From assembly GCF_023700755.1 (NCBI RefSeq), contig NZ_JAMKOJ010000005.1:186001-250000 (forward strand): 64,000 nucleotides of DNA. The letters run 5' to 3'. Position 1 is the first letter of the stretch. Each line of letters begins with the position of its first letter. Below, in pieces: positions 46,199-53,604 of the stretch. Both the position numbers and the translations under genes were made by a program. The notes beneath the pieces were generated by a model. The model worked only from the letters and a program-made list of their open reading frames with translations. It made no database searches and had not been told where the DNA came from. Origin of the DNA: Allorhizobium sonneratiae (GTDB lineage: Bacteria; Pseudomonadota; Alphaproteobacteria; Rhizobiales; Rhizobiaceae).

Positions 46199-47689
46199 AT
46201 GGAGCAGGATGAATTTCAAGCCTTGATCACACCGCAGGCGATGGCCGACATTGATCGTGAGGCGGCAGAAACCGGTCTGGACAGTTTTTCGCTGATGCTG
46301 CGCGCCGGCCGGGCCGTCGCCGCCGCCGTGCTGCGCCATTATCCGCAGCTTTTGCGCGCGGTTGTTCTCTGCGGCCCGGGCAATAATGGCGGCGACGGCT
46401 ATATCGCGGCTGAGGCGCTACGGTTGAGCGGTGTTCCTGTTGCGGTGTTTTGTCATGGCGATCCTGACCGCCTGAAAGGAGACGCCGCCCGCGCGAAAGC
46501 CGCCTGTTCCAGTCAGGTGGCGCCTCTGGCGGAATTTGTCGCAAGAGCTGGCGACGTGGTCATCGACGCCCTGTTCGGCGCGGGGCTTGCCCGCGATCTT
46601 TCCCCCGAAATCTGTGCCGCCATCGAACGCGTCAAGGATGCCGGCCTACCTGTGGTGGCGGTCGATCTGCCCTCCGGCATTGATGGCCTGACCGGACAGC
46701 CGCGCCCCGTGGCATTGGAGGCTGCGCAGACGGTGACCTTCATGGCGCTGAAGCCGGGGCATGTGTTGTTGCCGGGGCGGGTCCATTGCGGGGCCATCGA
46801 AGTATTTGACATCGGCATTCCCCGGCGCATCATGGACCGGCATCGTGGGAGCATTGCGCGCAACCATCCGCTTCTCTGGCAGGCCAGCCTGCCATGCCTG
46901 CAGGCGCAGGGCCATAAATTCAGCCGGGGGCATCTCACCGTCTTTTCCGGCCCGATCAGCGCCACAGGCGCGGCCCGACTTTCCGCCATGGCAGGACTGA
47001 GGGCCGGGGCAGGGCTGGTGACGCTTGCTTCGTCCGCATCGGCGCTGATGGTCAATGCAAGCCAGACCACGGCTGTCATGGTCAAGAAGATCGAGGATGA
47101 GATGGCACTTGACGCTTACCTCGCCGATCAGCGGCTGAGCGCCTTCGTGCTTGGCCCCGGTTTCGGTGTCGGTGAAAAGGCGCGTGGCTTCATCTCTCGT
47201 CTTTGCGGTCGAAAACTGGTGCTCGATGCCGATGGCATCTCGTCCTTCAAGGATGACCCCGCAGCGCTCTTTTCATTGTTTGCCGAGGGCGAGACACGGC
47301 TGGTGATGACGCCACATGCCGGGGAATTTGCCCGCCTGTTTCCCGATCTCGCCGCAGAAACGCGCATTGGCAAGGTGGAACAGACGGTGCGCGCGGCACA
47401 AAGAAGCCATGCCGTGCTGGTGCACAAGGGGGCGGATACCGTGATTGCCAGCCCGGATGGACGGGCCCTGATCAACGACAATGCGCCAGCCTGGCTTGCC
47501 ACCGCCGGATCGGGCGACGTGCTGGCAGGTGTGATCGGCGGTCTTCTGGCGCAGGGCGTTCCCGCCTTCGAGGCCGCAGCGGCAGGCGTCTATCTGCATG
47601 GCGAGGCCGGACAACGCGCCGGCGACGGCATGACGGCGGAAGATCTGGTCAAGGCCGTTCGACCGTTTCAAGCTGCCACAGCCTGTTGA
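46199..47689 (+). CDS. nnr: Bifunctional NAD(P)H-hydrate repair enzyme
   Basis: Repairs damaged NADHX/NADPHX: the N-terminal domain epimerises the hydrate and the C-terminal domain dehydrates it with ADP. The 496 residues contain the epimerase Rossmann-like block VVLCGPGNNGGDGYIAAEAL near residue 56 and VVAVDLPSGIDGLTGQ, then the ribokinase-like half with VTVFSGPISATGAARLSAMAG-type start, VMTPHAGEFARLFPD and NDNAPAWLATAGSGDVLAGVIGGLL near residue 425. The length matches the fused E. coli protein (YjeF). It diverges from glnB. A small antisense frame overlaps its last 22 bases. Confidence 0.94.
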   Translation: MEQDEFQALITPQAMADIDREAAETGLDSFSLMLRAGRAVAAAVLRHYPQLLRAVVLCGPGNNGGDGYIAAEALRLSGVPVAVFCHGDPDRLKGDAARAKAACSSQVAPLAEFVARAGDVVIDALFGAGLARDLSPEICAAIERVKDAGLPVVAVDLPSGIDGLTGQPRPVALEAAQTVTFMALKPGHVLLPGRVHCGAIEVFDIGIPRRIMDRHRGSIARNHPLLWQASLPCLQAQGHKFSRGHLTVFSGPISATGAARLSAMAGLRAGAGLVTLASSASALMVNASQTTAVMVKKIEDEMALDAYLADQRLSAFVLGPGFGVGEKARGFISRLCGRKLVLDADGISSFKDDPAALFSLFAEGETRLVMTPHAGEFARLFPDLAAETRIGKVEQTVRAAQRSHAVLVHKGADTVIASPDGRALINDNAPAWLATAGSGDVLAGVIGGLLAQGVPAFEAAAAGVYLHGEAGQRAGDGMTAEDLVKAVRPFQAATAC

Positions 47690-47820
47690 AGCAGGCGCGC
47701 ACCGTTCGGCGCGTAGACCTTGCCACCGGTGATGAAGACGGCAAAAACATCGCGCGTCTGTTTTTCTATGTTTCGGCCTGGCATTCGCCCCCGCCAGCGG
47801 CGTTGACGGCGCGCGCCCAC
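47668..47820 (-). CDS. Possible small basic protein antisense to the nnr end
   Basis: Unrecognised frame of about 50 residues from a GTG at 47820, or 38 from an ATG at 47784 (MPGRNIEKQTRDVFAVFITG...). The N-part is very basic (GARRQRRWRGR) and the C-part looks folded (DVFAVFITGGKVYAPNG, then ARLLQQAVAA). It overlaps nnr by only 22 bases, so its content is not simply an antisense shadow. It may be the tail of a lost gene or a real short gene. No clear ribosome site was found. Confidence 0.35.
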   Translation of the reverse strand: MGARRQRRWRGRMPGRNIEKQTRDVFAVFITGGKVYAPNGARLLQQAVAA

Positions 47821-47844
47821 CACGCCGAAGAAGCGGAAAACAGA

Positions 47845-48095
47845 TCAGCGTGTTAACCTGTACCAACCGGGGTCTTGTCTCGGCGCCGAAAGGGGGGGAA
47901 CTTCAAGGTGTAATCACAAATTTCCTCTCGCCTTTTTCAGCAGCCTGATAGAGCGCCGCTCTGATTTAATCCTATCGAATTGCGCTCTCAATGAACATCA
48001 ACACGCTCAAGCCATCTTTTATGCGGTGAAGCAGATATGTTAAAGACAAACCAGGCGTTGTGACGTGAAACATTGAAATCCAGTCTGGGTGGTGC
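47845..48095. other. Gap before the accessory cassette
   Basis: No gene recognised. Base composition becomes AT-richer from about 47,920 onward, suggesting the left limit of the acquired cassette. No direct repeat, integrase or insertion-sequence end was seen. Confidence 0.4.
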
Positions 48096-48860
48096 ATGAA
48101 GCAGAAATTTCTGAAAATTAAAGAAGGCGCAGAATTATCATTCGTTTCAGCCGATGAACTTGTTTTTCCACCACATTCCCACGACGAGTATGTCATCAGC
48201 CATAATTTTTCTGGCCACGAAAAAGTCAAGCTGGATAGCAAACACTTTGAAGCGGCTGAAGGAACAACCACCCTCTATAACCCGGGCCAAATACAATCCA
48301 GTTGCGGTGTACGGTCAATTCTCAGTGTCTATCTCACCACACCATATTTAACGGAAGCCGGGATCGCTGCACGAGACATTGATTTCGAGGTTTCAGTCGT
48401 CAACGATCCCGCCCTCGCCGCAACATTCGGGGTTTTGCGGAGCTTAATGGAAGACGATGATTGCGACAGTGTGAGTGAACAGACGAATATGATCCTGTTG
48501 CAACTTTTAGTCAGGAAAAATCCTCTTTGCGCAGACACAAAAAGTCATATGGGGTCGGCTCGTCTCACGGCAGCCCAAGCCATGCTCAGAGATAACCTCG
48601 ATCAAAATGTGTCGCTTGACGCGCTTTCAAAAGAGCTGGGTGTGACCCCTCTGCACCTGATCCGGTCGTTCGTCAAAAGTTGTGGCGTTCCACCGATGAC
48701 CTGGCAACGCATCAAACGCATTGAAGCGGCAAGAGACCTCTTGCGAAACGGAATAGCACCGACAGACGTTGCCTACCAGGTAGGGTTTTCGGACCAGGCG
48801 CACTTAACGCGCTGGTTCAAGAGGGCCTATAAGATCACGCCAGCCGCATTTCAAAAATGA
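48096..48860 (+). CDS. AraC family transcriptional regulator
   Basis: Regulator with an N-terminal cupin-like AraC ligand domain (VFPPHSHDEYVISHNFSGHEKV near residue 27; GTTTLYNPGQIQ) and a C-terminal pair of helix-turn-helix units (VSLDALSKELGVTPLHLIRSFVKSCGVPPMTWQRIKRIEAARDLL; PTDVAYQVGFSDQAHLTRWFKRAYKITPAAF) near residues 168-250. The 254 residues are normal for the AraC_binding subgroup. It is followed 73 bases later by an oxygenase gene and a LysE exporter on the same strand, so it probably senses the substrate or product and activates those genes. The sequence is AT-richer than surrounding core genes, suggesting transfer. Confidence 0.9.
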   Translation: MKQKFLKIKEGAELSFVSADELVFPPHSHDEYVISHNFSGHEKVKLDSKHFEAAEGTTTLYNPGQIQSSCGVRSILSVYLTTPYLTEAGIAARDIDFEVSVVNDPALAATFGVLRSLMEDDDCDSVSEQTNMILLQLLVRKNPLCADTKSHMGSARLTAAQAMLRDNLDQNVSLDALSKELGVTPLHLIRSFVKSCGVPPMTWQRIKRIEAARDLLRNGIAPTDVAYQVGFSDQAHLTRWFKRAYKITPAAFQK

Positions 48861-48933
48861 TAATTGCGTTCAATAATCGCAATGCGCGAGACGCTAATGA
48901 ACTCTCCTGTTCAACAAACAGGGTAATGCCTTC

Positions 48934-49719
48934 ATGAGTTCAAATGCTGTAGCCGTTCAATTGGACGAGTTTGGTCATGATCTTGCGGTCGATGAAATCG
49001 ACGCGCTCATTCTCAATTCGATCAAAAAATTCATTTTTAGAGCCGATTTCTCCGAAATGCAGAATTCGCTTGAAAACAAAGGCTTTGCAGTATTGCGGGG
49101 TCTGCTCGATGCCAACCTCTTCGCTGCGGTAGAAGCGGAATGCAATGCTCTGCTCAATCGTCATGGCAAGTCACGGGATTTCGTGATGAAGCAAACCGCA
49201 AATACGCCAAGGAAAATGGTCAATGTGAAGCGTGATGATATTCACAAGTATGGGCGTGTCATTCCACAAATCTACCACTCTGAATGGGTTCGTTCGGTCT
49301 TCGGGATGATTGCCAGGGAAACCTTTAGTACTGTTCCGTATACGCCGGAGGAATATATCGTCAACGCCCTCTATAAAAGCGGCGATACCCACGGCTGGCA
49401 TTGGGACGACTATCGCTATGGAATCGTGTTTGCGATTGAAACCCCTGCGCTGGAGAACGGCGGGTTTGTTCAGGTCGTCCCGAACACGCATTGGAACCGG
49501 GCCAACCCGAGCGTGGAGGAGAACCTTTTCCGCAATCCGATTCATTCCTTCCGGCTTGAACCCGGAGATGCTTATATCCTGCGTAGCGACACCGGCTTGC
49601 ATCGTGTTCACCCGATCACGGAAGGCTCAAAGCGTGTGATCGTCAATATGGTTTGGGCCGCAGCAGACGAACTATCCAAGGACGTATCGCATGATACGAT
49701 GGAGGCATTATTCGAATGA
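48934..49719 (+). CDS. Fe(II)/2-oxoglutarate-dependent oxygenase (phytanoyl-CoA-dioxygenase-like)
   Basis: Non-haem iron oxygenase of 261 residues. The facial triad can be read as H156-W-D158 (SGDTHGWHWDDYRYG) and the distal H223 (DTGLHRVHPIT), with R234 eleven residues later as the 2-oxoglutarate anchor (KRVIVNMVWA). The aspartate in HxD predicts hydroxylation; related radical halogenases acting on free amino acids, of the BesD type, have Gly there. The N-terminal half has KGFAVLRGLLDANLF typical of the jelly-roll entry. Its stop overlaps the LysE exporter start by four bases, pointing to an amino acid-like product. Substrate assignment is inference. Confidence 0.85.
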   Translation: MSSNAVAVQLDEFGHDLAVDEIDALILNSIKKFIFRADFSEMQNSLENKGFAVLRGLLDANLFAAVEAECNALLNRHGKSRDFVMKQTANTPRKMVNVKRDDIHKYGRVIPQIYHSEWVRSVFGMIARETFSTVPYTPEEYIVNALYKSGDTHGWHWDDYRYGIVFAIETPALENGGFVQVVPNTHWNRANPSVEENLFRNPIHSFRLEPGDAYILRSDTGLHRVHPITEGSKRVIVNMVWAAADELSKDVSHDTMEALFE

Positions 49720-50339
49720 GCCTGTTGTTTGGAACAGCATTCGTTTTGGGCCTTTTGTTCAATGTCTCCCCCGGTGCGGTTTTCGCGGAAACCATGCGTC
49801 GAGGGATGCGCGGAGGCTTCTATCCGGCTTTATATGTACAAATCGGTTCGCTTGTCGGAGATGCCTGTTGGGCGATCCTTGGGCTGGCTGGCGCAGGACT
49901 GCTGTTCCAAATCCCAAGCATCAGAGTCCCTTTGACGTTAGCCGGGGCGCTGTATTTCGCCTATCTTGGTTATGGCTGCCTTGTTGACGCGTTAAGGCCT
50001 GCAGAACAAGCACATGAACCCGCAGGGCGGCTGAAAACATCCCAAAGTGCTGTCATGGCAGGCGTGACGATTTCGGTCACAAATCCTAAAAACGTGATTT
50101 ACTGGGCCGCCCTTGGAGGGGTGCTTGGCGGCTTGGGATTTCAAAATCCCGGCACTTTGGAATACTCTGTCTTCTTTGCTGGCTTCATGGCATCATCGTT
50201 TTTCTGGTGTTTCGTTTGCGCTTGGTTGATCGACTTCCTCAGCCGGAACCTGACGGGTATATGGCGTCAGTCGGTGGATATTGTTCTGGCGATGACTCTG
50301 TTCTTCCTGTCTTTCGTGGTTCTGCGCGAGATATTTTAA
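49716..50339 (+). CDS. LysE family exporter
   Basis: Inner-membrane exporter, 207 residues, about six helices, with LysE features FNVSPGAVFAETMRRGMRGGF near residue 15, QIGSLVGDACWAILGLAG, and VTISVTNPKNVIYWAALGG near residue 118. Translation is coupled to the oxygenase by an ATGA overlap. The most economical reading is that it exports the hydroxylated product. Its stop lies one base before the start of similarity to a broken DUF72 gene on the other strand. Confidence 0.88.
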   Translation: MSLLFGTAFVLGLLFNVSPGAVFAETMRRGMRGGFYPALYVQIGSLVGDACWAILGLAGAGLLFQIPSIRVPLTLAGALYFAYLGYGCLVDALRPAEQAHEPAGRLKTSQSAVMAGVTISVTNPKNVIYWAALGGVLGGLGFQNPGTLEYSVFFAGFMASSFFWCFVCAWLIDFLSRNLTGIWRQSVDIVLAMTLFFLSFVVLREIF

Positions 50340-50340
50340 A

Positions 50341-50483
50341 CGACTGGCCTTCAGCGAAAAGATGAAATCCTCTGGCACTTCGGCGGCCCACTTGGCAAAG
50401 GTTTCGGGTTTCTGGCTGGAATAATAGCTGGCGTTGACCTCAATCGCCTTAAGCTGACGGCTGGCATGTTCCAACTGTCACTT
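50341..50483 (-). pseudogene. Internal fragment of a DUF72 family gene
   Basis: The minus-strand frame reads QLEHASRQLKAIEVNASYYS and continues SQKPETFAKWAAEVPEDFIFSLKASR, matching an internal part of DUF72 (YecE-type) proteins as I know them. A stop codon sits directly before the fragment (TGA at 50484-50486) and the similarity ends at the LysE gene, so both ends of the DUF72 gene are missing. It is a remnant, probably cut when the neighbouring cassette arrived or by deletion. Confidence 0.75.
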
Positions 50484-50521
50484 CCTTGGTAGTTTATCAG
50501 GATAAAAGCGACCCCCCACGG

Positions 50522-50632
50522 CTCTAGAGTCTGTCAGGTTCAGATTGAACCAGACAGGCTCTATCATTGTTTGTTTTCGTTTGTCTTTGCGGGAAAACCG
50601 GTCACCACTTTTCCCTGACAAACTCTAAAGTC
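50522..50632. repeat. Palindromic intergenic element with two hairpins
   Basis: Hairpin 1 (50526-50562) pairs AGAG-CTGTC-GGTTCA with TGAACC-GACAG-CTCT. Hairpin 2 pairs GTTTGTC (50579-50585) and GGGAAAA (50591-50597) with TTTTCCC (50609-50615) and GACAAAC (50617-50623). It resembles palindromic repeats common in Rhizobiales chromosomes. It lies between the DUF72 remnant and the uvrA stop. Confidence 0.72.
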
Positions 50633-50682
50633 CAGCCCGCCAATGCCGGTTCGGAGACGACCCCGCTCCATCGTGGCCACTC

Positions 50683-53604
50683 CTATTCTGCAGCTTCCGT
50701 CTTTTTCATCGGCCTGCGCTCCAGCAGTTCTTTCAGGAACTGACCGGTATATGAGGCTTTTACCTTCACCACATCTTCCGGTGTGCCTTCGGCAACGATG
50801 GTGCCGCCGCCGTCGCCGCCTTCGGGGCCGAAATCGATGATCCAGTCGGCGGTCTTGATCACTTCCAGATTGTGTTCGATCACCACGACGGAATTGCCCT
50901 GATTGACCAGCTCCTGCAACATTTCCAGAAGCTTGGCGACATCGTGGAAATGCAGGCCGGTGGTCGGTTCGTCGAGAATATAGAGCGTTCGCCCGGTCGA
51001 GCGCTTCGACAGTTCCTTGGCGAGCTTCACCCGCTGCGCCTCACCGCCCGAGAGCGTATTGGCCTGCTGGCCGACCTTGATATAGCCGAGGCCGACATCG
51101 AAAAGCGCCTGCAACTTGTCGCGCACGGCAGGAACGGCGGAGAAGAAATCGACGCCTTCCTCGACCGTCATGTCCAGCACATCGGCAATCGATTTGCCCT
51201 TGAAGGTCACGTCGAGTGTCTCGCGATTGTAGCGCTTGCCGTGGCAGACGTCGCAGGTGACATAGACATCCGGCAGGAAGTGCATTTCGATCTTGATGAC
51301 ACCATCGCCTTGGCAGGCTTCGCAGCGCCCGCCTTTGACGTTGAAGGAGAAGCGACCCGGCTGATAGCCCCGCGCCTTGGCCTCCGGCAGACCGGCAAAC
51401 CAGTCGCGGATCGGGGTGAAGGCGCCGGTATAGGTGGCAGGATTGGAGCGCGGCGTGCGGCCGATGGGTGACTGGTCGATATCGATCACCTTGTCGATGA
51501 ATTCAAACCCGTCAATCCGGTCATGCTCGGCCGGATTTTCCCGCGCGCCCATGACACGCCGCGCCGCCGCCTTGTAGAGCGTTTCGATCAGGAAGGTGGA
51601 TTTGCCGCCGCCAGAAACGCCGGTGACGGCGGTGAAGACACCGAGCGGAATGGCGGCGCTGACGTTTTTCAGATTGTTGCCCTTGGCGCCGATCACTTTG
51701 ATCTGCTGGCCCTTTTTCGGCTTGCGACGCTTGTCCGGCACGGCAACACCAAGCTCTCCGGTCAGATATTTGCCGGTGAGCGATTTGGGATTGGCCATGA
51801 TCTCCTGCGGCGTACCGGCTGCCACGACCTGACCGCCGTGAATGCCAGCCGCCGGACCGATATCGACAACATGATCGGCGGTTAAAATTGCATCCTCGTC
51901 ATGCTCAACCACGATCACGGTATTGCCGATGTCACGCAGATGTTTCAGCGTATCGAGCAGGCGGGCATTGTCGCGCTGGTGCAGGCCGATGGACGGCTCA
52001 TCCAGCACGTAGAGCACGCCGGTCAGGCCCGAGCCGATCTGCGAGGCCAACCGGATGCGCTGACTTTCCCCGCCCGACAGCGTGCCGGATGAGCGCGAAA
52101 GGCTGAGATAATCGAGCCCGACATCATTGAGGAAGGTCAGTCGCTCACGGATTTCCTTGAGAATGCGGGTGGCGATCTCATTCTGCTTGTCGGTGAGTTT
52201 TTCTGGCAATGTATTGAACCATGCGCCTGCCACCCGGATCGACATTTCCGAGACCTGACCGATATGCAGCCCATCGAGCTTGACCGCGAGAGCCTCCGGT
52301 TTCAGACGAAAGCCGTTGCAGGCCGGGCAGGGGGCGGCGGACATGTAGCGCTCGATTTCTTCGCGCGCCCAGTTGCTGTCGGTTTCCTTCCAGCGCCGGT
52401 CGAGATTGGGAACAATGCCCTCGAAACTCTTGGTGGCGGTGTAAGAACGTGCACCATCGGCATAATGGAATTCGATCTTGTCGTCTGTGCCATGAAGAAT
52501 GGCTTTTTTCGCCGCATCGCTCAGATCGGTCCATTTGCTGGTCAGCTTGAAGCCGAAGACCTTGCCCAGCCCTTCCAGCGTCTGATTATAATAGGGCGAG
52601 GAGGATTTGGCCCAAGGTGCAATCGCGCCATCCTTAAGCTTTTTGTCCGGCTCCGGCACGATCAGTGCCTCATCGATCTTTTGCTGAAAACCGAGACCGT
52701 CGCAGGTCGGGCAGGCACCGAAGGGATTGTTGAAGGAGAAAAGCCGCGGTTCGATCTCCGGAATGGTGAATCCGGAGACCGGGCAGGCAAATTTTTCCGA
52801 AAACAACACCCGCTCATGGGTTTCGTTGAGCGATTTATTGGCCGAGCCACCCGCAGCGGTCTCTTCCGGCGGCAGCGGCTTGTCGGCAAATTCAGCAACG
52901 GCCAGACCATCGGCGAGGGTGAGGCAGGTCTCGAGACTATCGGCCAGACGCGACGCCATGTCGGGCCGCACCACGACACGGTCAACCACGACATCGATAT
53001 CGTGCTTGTATTTCTTGTCGAGCGCCGGTGCCTCGGCGATTTCGTAGAACTGGCCGTCGATCTTGACGCGCTGAAACCCCTTCTTCATCAGTTCGGCCAG
53101 CTCTTTTTTATATTCGCCCTTACGGCCGCGGATCATCGGCGCAAGAATATAGAGCCGCGTCCCCTCATCGAAGGCCAGAATACGGTCCACCATCTGGCTC
53201 ACCGTCTGGCTTTCGATGGGAAGCCCGGTGGCAGGCGAATAGGGCACGCCGACGCGGGCAAAGAGCAGACGCATGTAATCATGGATTTCCGTGACCGTGC
53301 CCACCGTCGAGCGCGGATTGCGCGAGGTGGTTTTCTGCTCGATGGAAATCGCCGGTGACAGGCCCTCGATCTGGTCGACATCCGGCTTCTGCATCATTTC
53401 CAGAAACTGCCGCGCATAGGCCGAGAGACTTTCCACATAACGGCGCTGGCCCTCGGCATAGATGGTGTCGAAGGCAAGCGAGGATTTGCCTGAACCGGAC
53501 AGACCCGTCATGACGATCAGGCTGTTGCGCGGCAGGTCGAGGTCCACGCCCTTCAGATTGTGCTCGCGTGCGCCACGTATGGAAATCGTCTTCAGTTCGC
53601 TCAT
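50683..53604 (-). CDS. uvrA: Excinuclease ABC subunit A
   Basis: Damage-recognition ATPase of nucleotide excision repair. The 973-residue protein has two ABC modules: Walker A motifs [14 protein letters not shown] near residue 33 and [14 protein letters not shown] near residue 665, signatures [12 protein letters not shown] and [15 protein letters not shown], Walker B ends [15 protein letters not shown] and [15 protein letters not shown]. Zinc-binding cysteine pairs are visible ([17 protein letters not shown] and CDVCHGKRY). The length is standard. It diverges from ssb around a shared LexA box; Mfd, also in this window, delivers UvrA to stalled polymerase. Confidence 0.98.

What the first reader, a model, noticed from the sequence alone, without database searches (positions are those of the whole stretch)
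48096..50339. AraC - Fe/2OG oxygenase - LysE cassette: a candidate amino acid hydroxylation and export system
Seen: three same-strand genes, the last two overlapping by ATGA, all AT-richer than flanking core genes. The oxygenase has an intact HxD...H triad (H156, D158, H223) and R234. Known: LysE proteins export amino acids, and a branch of small Fe/2OG enzymes modifies free amino acids, with HxG giving halogenases (BesD type) and HxD hydroxylases. Inferred: the regulator senses a compound, the enzyme hydroxylates it and the exporter releases it. I know of no described system with exactly this trio.
Basis: partly seen in the sequence, partly recalled or inferred. Interest (0 to 1): 0.72.

Follow-up and report, generated by a model that had tools for sequence, protein, structure and literature searches.

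The report
Amino-acid hydroxylase and exporter operon
A small, horizontally acquired bacterial gene cassette joins a regulator, an enzyme that probably adds a hydroxyl group to a free lysine-like amino acid, and a pump that probably exports the amino acid; related bacteria carry the same combination built from different versions of the parts.

Summary
In detail: AraC (48096-48860), Fe/2OG oxygenase (48934-49719) and LysE (49716-50339) lie on one strand, the last two overlapping by ATGA. The oxygenase belongs to the BesD/HalD amino-acid halogenase family (PF23169) but has HxD instead of HxG, so it is predicted to be a hydroxylase. Its AlphaFold model matches HalB-lysine, HalD-ornithine and the lysine hydroxylase 7jsd; BesD's lysine-holding residues R77, E123, H137, D143 are R93, E139, H153, D159 here. 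LysE linkage recurs: in 4 of 4 clade-A loci with readable DNA the exporter overlaps the oxygenase by 4 nt, and a separate oxygenase clade in Hyphomicrobiales is paired mainly with a different LysE subfamily and a related AraC. Nine distinct AraC/oxygenase/LysE loci were seen. Across the wider family the linkage is rare (8 of 80 loci). The cassette is an insertion: it splits a DUF72 gene that is intact in 9 of 10 congeners examined, and 62 of 62 other congeneric genomes lack the oxygenase. AraC-LysE also occurs without the oxygenase; in one case (G744) a scrap of the oxygenase gene remains between them, so it was lost there. Substrate, inducer and export cargo are inferred, not shown. New variant of a known kind.

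The parts
48096..48860 (+). AraC-family regulator (AraC_binding sensor + HTH_18); several homologues are labelled ChpD by a source
   Evidence: homologues beside HalD oxygenases in Hyphomicrobiales
48934..49719 (+). HalD/BesD-family Fe(II)/2OG oxygenase, HxD type, predicted cationic amino-acid hydroxylase
   Evidence: AlphaFold model pLDDT 92.3; Foldseek best 7u6j HalB with lysine
49716..50339 (+). LysE-type translocator (many homologues labelled ChpE by a source); start overlaps oxygenase stop by ATGA
47764..50339 (.). inferred extent of the inserted cassette (about 2.58 kb) within a DUF72 gene
   Evidence: Comparison with the nnrD-uvrA interval of 10 congeners
50340..50474 (-). remnant of the 5' part of a DUF72 gene (45 codons match), broken at the LysE stop
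   Evidence: 82-87% identical to DUF72 in 9 of 10 congeners; Pfam DUF72 E 7.4e-15
47686..47763 (-). remnant of the 3' end of the same DUF72 gene, next to nnrD
   Evidence: blastn to the DUF72 3' ends of 4 of 10 congeners (L149, L153, L154, L156)

Best explanation
The cassette is a horizontally acquired hydroxylation-and-export module with its own regulator. An AraC regulator responds to an amino acid or a derivative of it. The HalD-family Fe(II)/2-oxoglutarate enzyme hydroxylates a side-chain carbon of a free cationic amino acid (lysine or ornithine most likely, arginine possible), using 2OG and O2 and releasing succinate and CO2. The LysE-type transporter, whose start codon overlaps the oxygenase stop, pumps the amino acid out, probably the hydroxylated form. 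Shown: gene content, overlap, family membership, ligand and pocket residues, predicted fold, recurrence of the association, insertion into DUF72. Inferred: substrate class, site of hydroxylation, transport cargo, inducer and biological use.
For: Family: PF23169 296.5 bits; PDB sequence relatives are HalB, HalD, HalA, BesD and the lysine hydroxylase 7jsd; the model matches the same set, TM by query length 0.79-0.89 in the first 36 rows. HxD: D158 stands where the four PDB halogenases have G. Of the BesD residues that MD in PMC13244439 (passages) gives to L-Lys, R77, E123, H137 and D143 map to R93, E139, H153 and D159; less surely, because the alignment has a gap there, D239 maps to E257 and W241 to L259 beside F260. 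LysE adjacency: 4 of 4 clade-A loci with readable DNA, all with a 4-nt RTGA overlap (window, L002, L003, L005); 7 of 13 further clade-A proteins share an exact contig length with a listed LysE homologue (indirect). Clade B: 6 of the 7 other family/order genomes with a HalD hit have AraC and LysE beside it; so do Cohaesibacter L081 and Phyllobacterium plasmid pT1293a. Clades A and B are separate (100/99 and 99/95), and clade-A LysE are 15-22% identical to those of the six clade-B trios compared, while Aureimonas L071 joins a clade-B oxygenase to a ChpE-type LysE: the pairing arose or was reassembled more than once. In Azohydromonas (L003) an ArgP/LysG-family regulator (378.5 bits, cut-off 297) lies next to oxygenase-LysE.
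Against: No substrate was tested. R93, E139, H153 and D159 are invariant in all 201 aligned family members, so they do not tell this clade's substrate from others'. The LysE proteins of both subfamilies that were scanned (the window's and five others) pass no NCBIfam equivalog cut-off: window L-lysine exporter 38.6 bits against 213.65. AraC-LysE without the oxygenase exists in G744 and G162, and AraC without either neighbour in G475. The three Betaproteobacterial clade-A loci lack this AraC. One clade-B member (L078, Salinarimonas) has neither AraC nor LysE beside it. The ArgP gene of L003 is convergent with LysE and was found at no other clade-A locus.
Confidence: 0.62

Rival explanations
1. 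The AraC-LysE pair is an ordinary overflow or resistance exporter for an amino acid or toxic analogue, and the oxygenase is an accessory that inactivates the same compound by hydroxylation: detoxification rather than production of a secreted product.
For: AraC-LysE occurs without oxygenase in G744 and G162. G744 has the genus code of G509, which has the trio; their LysE are 78% and their AraC 81% identical, and the AraC-LysE gap of G744 keeps a 37-nt piece 86% identical to the 3' part of the G509 oxygenase gene (E 9.6e-8). So in G744 the oxygenase was lost while regulator and exporter stayed.
Against: In clade A the oxygenase-LysE pair is the constant part and AraC the variable one; the 4-nt overlap favours enzyme and exporter acting on one flux. 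The G162 contig ends 428 bp upstream of its AraC, so an oxygenase beyond that end cannot be excluded, although the whole-genome search found none.
Confidence: 0.25
2. The enzyme makes a hydroxylated amino acid for a downstream pathway encoded elsewhere (peptide, siderophore or antibiotic), and LysE export is incidental or exports the end product.
For: Other HalD-family HxD enzymes sit beside an NRPS gene (Roseomonas plasmid, annotated; L022 by my reading), ectB-type aminotransferase genes (L061, L035) and an aminotransferase plus permease in Peribacillus.
Against: No biosynthetic gene is attached to the trio: the window flanks read as glnA, glnB-like, nnrD and DUF72 remnant, uvrA (names by my reading), and the insert holds only the three genes.
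Confidence: 0.1
3. The enzyme is a halogenase or has another outcome (desaturation, epimerisation) despite HxD.
For: N238 is of the halogenase type (N222 in BesD; V223 in the lysine hydroxylase of 7jsd, PMC13244439).
Against: The carboxylate D158 fills the halide site; the four PDB halogenases compared all have G there.
Confidence: 0.05

Closest known systems
BesD/HalA/HalB/HalD free amino-acid halogenases (PF23169; PDB 6nie, 9oer, 7u6i/j, 7u6h)
   Same: Same family, fold and amino-acid-holding residues
   Different: HxD instead of HxG, so predicted hydroxylase; 31-35% identity in the structure alignments; NCBIfam BesD equivalog not met (170.1 of 450 bits)
BesD-homologous lysine hydroxylase ('Hydrox', PDB 7jsd, 9oet)
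   Same: Hydroxylase of the same family, with Asp at the metal (D142, PMC13244439); lysine bound in 7jsd
   Different: Window enzyme has V165 and N238 where Hydrox has N149 and V223; it is no closer to Hydrox in sequence than to the halogenases
B. thuringiensis IDO operon and Pantoea Hil operons
   Same: Free amino-acid 2OG hydroxylase encoded with an amino-acid exporter (RhtA) (PMC3684760, passages)
   Different: Enzymes of PF10014/PF13640 acting on isoleucine; exporter of the RhtA family, not LysE; a reductase/dehydrogenase as well; HilR of the Hil operon is LysR-type, not AraC
chpD-chpE of the Pseudomonas pil-chp gene cluster
   Same: Homologues of the AraC and LysE are labelled ChpD and ChpE by a source; chpD and chpE are PA0416 and PA0417 (PMC7253367, passages); that they are AraC- and LysE-type is recalled
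   Different: Window locus is not in a pilus-chemosensory cluster and has an oxygenase between them; the P. aeruginosa proteins were not compared directly
ArgP/LysG with ArgO/LysE lysine/arginine export systems
   Same: Regulator + LysE-family exporter logic (recalled)
   Different: AraC instead of LysR regulator in the window; LysE fails the L-lysine exporter equivalog

Membership tests
HalD/BesD family (Pfam PF23169) | Score over the curated cut-off | tested here: met
   296.5 bits, cut-off 26
HalD/BesD family (Pfam PF23169) | Conserved amino-acid clamp (BesD R77, E123, H137, D143) | tested here: met
   R93, E139, H153, D159
BesD-type halogenase | HxG at the metal site | tested here: not met
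   H156-W-D158
L-lysine 4-chlorinase BesD (NCBIfam NF042920) | Equivalog cut-off 450 bits | tested here: not met
   170.1 bits
Free amino-acid hydroxylase | 2OG-dependent hydroxylation of a free amino acid | not testable with these tools
   Needs an enzyme assay
LysE translocators (PF01810) | Score over the curated cut-off | tested here: met
   125.1 bits, cut-off 25.6
L-lysine exporter (TIGR00948) | Equivalog cut-off 213.65 bits | tested here: not met
   38.6 bits
AraC family | HTH_18 and AraC_binding domains | tested here: met
IDO/Hil operon | PF10014 hydroxylase and RhtA-family exporter | tested here: not met
   PF23169 and PF01810 instead
pil-chp cluster (chpD/chpE) | Neighbouring pilus chemosensory genes | tested here: not met
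   Flanks read as glnA, glnB-like, nnrD, DUF72 remnant, uvrA, ssb (by my reading; only 44-54.5 kb inspected)

The most novel reading that the evidence does not exclude
A modular, mobile class of hydroxylate-and-export operons exists in Proteobacteria, assembled at least twice from different HalD-family hydroxylase clades and different LysE subfamilies, with related AraC regulators, whose purpose is to release a hydroxylated cationic amino acid as an antimetabolite or signal.
Probability: 0.25. Interest if true: 0.7.

Novelty: new variant of a known kind. Interest (0 to 1): 0.5.

Why it matters
It links a HxD clade of the BesD/HalD family, for which I found no characterised member, to an export gene and a regulator. 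The family is of interest for selective C-H functionalisation of free amino acids. Gene linkage gives a concrete way to find substrate and purpose: what induces the operon, what is secreted. Natural loci with and without the oxygenase between related AraC and LysE genes (G509 against G744) make the question testable. Clade A also combines a hydroxylase ligand set with the halogenase-type Asn at position 238, which bears on how halogenases arose.

Tried and rejected
Rejected: acyl-CoA or phytanoyl-type function (PhyH hit only E 6.5e-6 against HalD 1.4e-88). Rejected: chance neighbourhood (recurrence in several lineages). Rejected: LysE linkage as a family-wide rule (8 of 80 loci). Led nowhere: Rfam scan of 47600-50800 (0 hits at E 0.1); the repeat search showed no convincing terminal repeats for the insertion; phmmer of LysE against the PDB (0 hits). 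In the LysE tree win_LysE has a long branch and its place is unsure; 11 oxygenase-linked LysE fall in one 24-row group (86/91) that also holds 13 rows of unknown linkage, while none of the 42 rows of the other large group is known to be linked. No tree of the AraC proteins was built. The plasmid collection gave 36 records, 7 with at least 80% of the query; I opened 5 of the 36 and only Phyllobacterium has a LysE in the stretch. The phage, viral-contig and E. coli collections were not searched. Two key papers (PNAS 2023 and Nat Chem Biol 2019, by DOI) are not held, so residues that set lysine against ornithine preference could not be read. Literature: ten searches of the CC-licensed library listed no paper on this trio as far as titles and abstract starts show; subscription papers are mostly outside it.

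Limits of counts: one search found 103 relatives and kept the best 80; its pattern THGWHWD favours HxD members, so the HxD share is biased. One search listed 120 of 441 LysE hits, one search listed 120 of 381. The LysE profile was seeded from the window protein, so remote LysE could be missed. Some loci are cut by contig ends; the AraC genes of L077 and L080 are incomplete for that reason. Ten of the 29 other congeners were fetched for the insertion comparison. In one search, 58 of 63 genomes meet the completeness and contamination limits.

Full report
Observation. Three + strand ORFs were confirmed at 48096-48860, 48934-49719 and 49716-50339. Pfam gives AraC_binding/HTH_18, HalD PF23169 and LysE PF01810. 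Oxygenase and LysE overlap by ATGA. GC is 49.2, 49.9 and 52.4% against 56.7% for the window, and GC3 51-56% against 69-75% for nnrD, uvrA and glnA.

The enzyme. phmmer against the PDB returns HalB, lysine halogenase (9oer series, called HalA), HalD, BesD and the lysine hydroxylase 7jsd/9oet; the ninth hit, a signal peptidase at E 0.59, is noise. An AlphaFold2 model from 49 sequences (pLDDT 92.3, pTM 0.89) matches HalB with lysine (7u6j, TM 0.88 query / 0.93 target), HalD with ornithine (7u6h) and Hydrox with lysine (7jsd); the first hit outside the family is SnoN at TM 0.60. The metal site is H156-x-D158...H223. In an alignment of 201 distinct sequences, position 158 is D in 197 and G in the four PDB halogenases (the D share is biased by the THGWHWD scan pattern). 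The complete BesD ORF was read from the S. cattleya megaplasmid. With the contacts named in PMC13244439 (passages), R77, E123, H137 and D143 map to R93, E139, H153 and D159; less surely, across an alignment gap, D239 maps to E257 and W241 to L259 beside F260. The first four are invariant in 201 of 201. This predicts a free, cationic amino-acid substrate, but does not separate lysine from ornithine or arginine. Two further positions that were changed to turn the hydroxylase towards halogenation (Hydrox N149I and V223N, PMC13244439) are V165 and N238 here; position 238 is N in 17 of 17 clade-A rows and V in 8 of 8 clade-B rows.

Recurrence. The genome scan found 103 relatives and kept 80. A LysE profile found LysE at 8 of these 80 loci: L002, L003, L005, L070, L071, L077, L080, L081; no actinobacterial locus gave a hit. 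The tree (64 rows) shows two separate LysE-linked clades. Clade A (19 rows, 100/99) holds the window, three Betaproteobacteria and 15 database proteins, two of them the same as L003 and L005. In all four loci whose DNA could be read the exporter start overlaps the oxygenase stop (ATGA or GTGA). Of the 13 remaining clade-A database proteins, 7 share an exact contig length with a listed LysE homologue and 6 do not; this is indirect. Clade B (8 rows, 99/95) holds Hyphomicrobiales: AraC-oxygenase-LysE in L070, L077, L080, L081, G728 and G509, and oxygenase-AraC-LysE in Aureimonas L071; L078 (Salinarimonas) has neither neighbour. A further trio lies on Phyllobacterium plasmid pT1293a, annotated AraC - hypothetical protein - LysE family translocator; it was one of 5 plasmid stretches opened of 36 records hit, and the only one with a LysE. 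With the window this makes nine distinct trio loci.

Of the seven others, six (G358, G463, G509, G591, G717, G728) have AraC and LysE beside it. G606 (L089, a 3.7-kb stretch) has neither; its protein reads THGWHLDD and is of a distant kind. G358, G717, G591 and G463 have the contig lengths of L071, L070, L077 and L080 and were counted once.

Modules mix. LysE of clade A and of six clade-B trios are 15-22% identical to each other, whereas the Aureimonas clade-B trio uses a ChpE-type LysE (43% to the window). AraC-LysE without the oxygenase occurs in G744 and in G162, and AraC without either neighbour in G475; none of these gave a HalD hit at E 1e-20. In G744 the 156-nt AraC-LysE gap keeps a 37-nt piece 86% identical to the 3' part of the G509 oxygenase gene (E 9.6e-8), and the gap's translated match to the Cohaesibacter oxygenase was reached by 0 of 100 shuffled gaps: the oxygenase was lost there while regulator and exporter stayed. 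The G162 contig ends 428 bp upstream of its AraC, so its case is less sure. Enzyme, exporter and regulator are separable parts that have come together repeatedly; I read this as functional coupling (inference).

Acquisition. In 30 congeneric genomes, the own one included, nnrD was found in 28 and uvrA in 30. In 9 of 10 fetched intervals a DUF72 gene of 266-270 codons lies between them (Pfam checked for one); the tenth (G107) has a 468-bp gap without it. None of the ten gave an AraC, oxygenase or LysE match better than E 0.07. In the window the first part of DUF72 survives at 50340-50474 (45 codons, 82-87% identical) and its 3' end at about 47686-47763 (matched in 4 of 10); the middle is replaced by about 2.58 kb carrying the trio. 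The oxygenase is present in 1 of 63 genomes of the genus, the window's own. This is best read as a horizontal insertion with loss of part of DUF72. No mobile-element ends were seen.

Mechanism. Best reading: AraC senses an amino acid or product (inferred); the enzyme hydroxylates a free cationic amino acid (predicted from family and pocket); the overlapping LysE exports it (inferred from linkage). In L003 an ArgP/LysG-family regulator (378.5 bits, cut-off 297) and a fatty-acid-desaturase-family protein flank the pair; that ArgP senses lysine and arginine is recalled knowledge. The ArgP is convergent with LysE and was not found at other clade-A loci, so it is weak support.

Known systems. A free amino-acid hydroxylase encoded with an exporter is precedented by the IDO operon of B. 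thuringiensis (hydroxylase, reductase, RhtA exporter; PMC3684760, passages), with other protein families. AraC and LysE homologues are labelled ChpD and ChpE by a source; in P. aeruginosa chpD and chpE are PA0416 and PA0417 (PMC7253367, passages). BesD-family halogenase substrates (lysine, ornithine; leucine, isoleucine, norleucine for PrHalE) are from PMC8407142 (passages). No listing of my ten searches showed a paper on a HalD-family enzyme with LysE and AraC (see Tried and rejected).

Noticed in passing
window 47686-47763 and 50340-50474: A DUF72 gene is split by the cassette and has lost its middle; it lies whole between nnrD and uvrA in 9 of 10 congeners examined.
   Followed up: yes
L061:6878-12367, L035:4683-10187, L025:6995-11083: HalD-family HxD oxygenases lie beside other genes: an EctB-type diaminobutyrate transaminase in L061 and L035, a PurD-like ATP-grasp protein in L061 and (below cut-off) L025, and in L061 a fatty-acid-desaturase-family protein: a possible separate biosynthetic pathway.
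   Followed up: partly
L215 (Peribacillus simplex plasmid pSHB26): HalD-family oxygenase between a PLP aminotransferase and an amino acid permease.
   Followed up: no
L003:5803-6795: Fatty-acid-desaturase-family protein distantly like an arginine hydroxylase (NF041365, 118.5 bits, cut-off 380) directly upstream of the clade-A oxygenase-LysE pair.
   Followed up: no
L202 (G744) against L161 (G509): Same genus code, AraC 81% and LysE 78% identical; the oxygenase is present in G509, and in G744 only a short scrap of its gene remains between AraC and LysE: a natural comparison pair.
   Followed up: partly
oxygenase residue N144 (window 48934-49719): Asn in 25 of 25 clade A and B rows, but Thr/Ser in 158 of 172 other rows (Asn in 9), five residues after E139.
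   Followed up: no
L071:5057-6724: The Aureimonas trio lies next to a conjugative coupling-protein gene (TraG/T4SS-DNA_transf), consistent with mobility.
   Followed up: no
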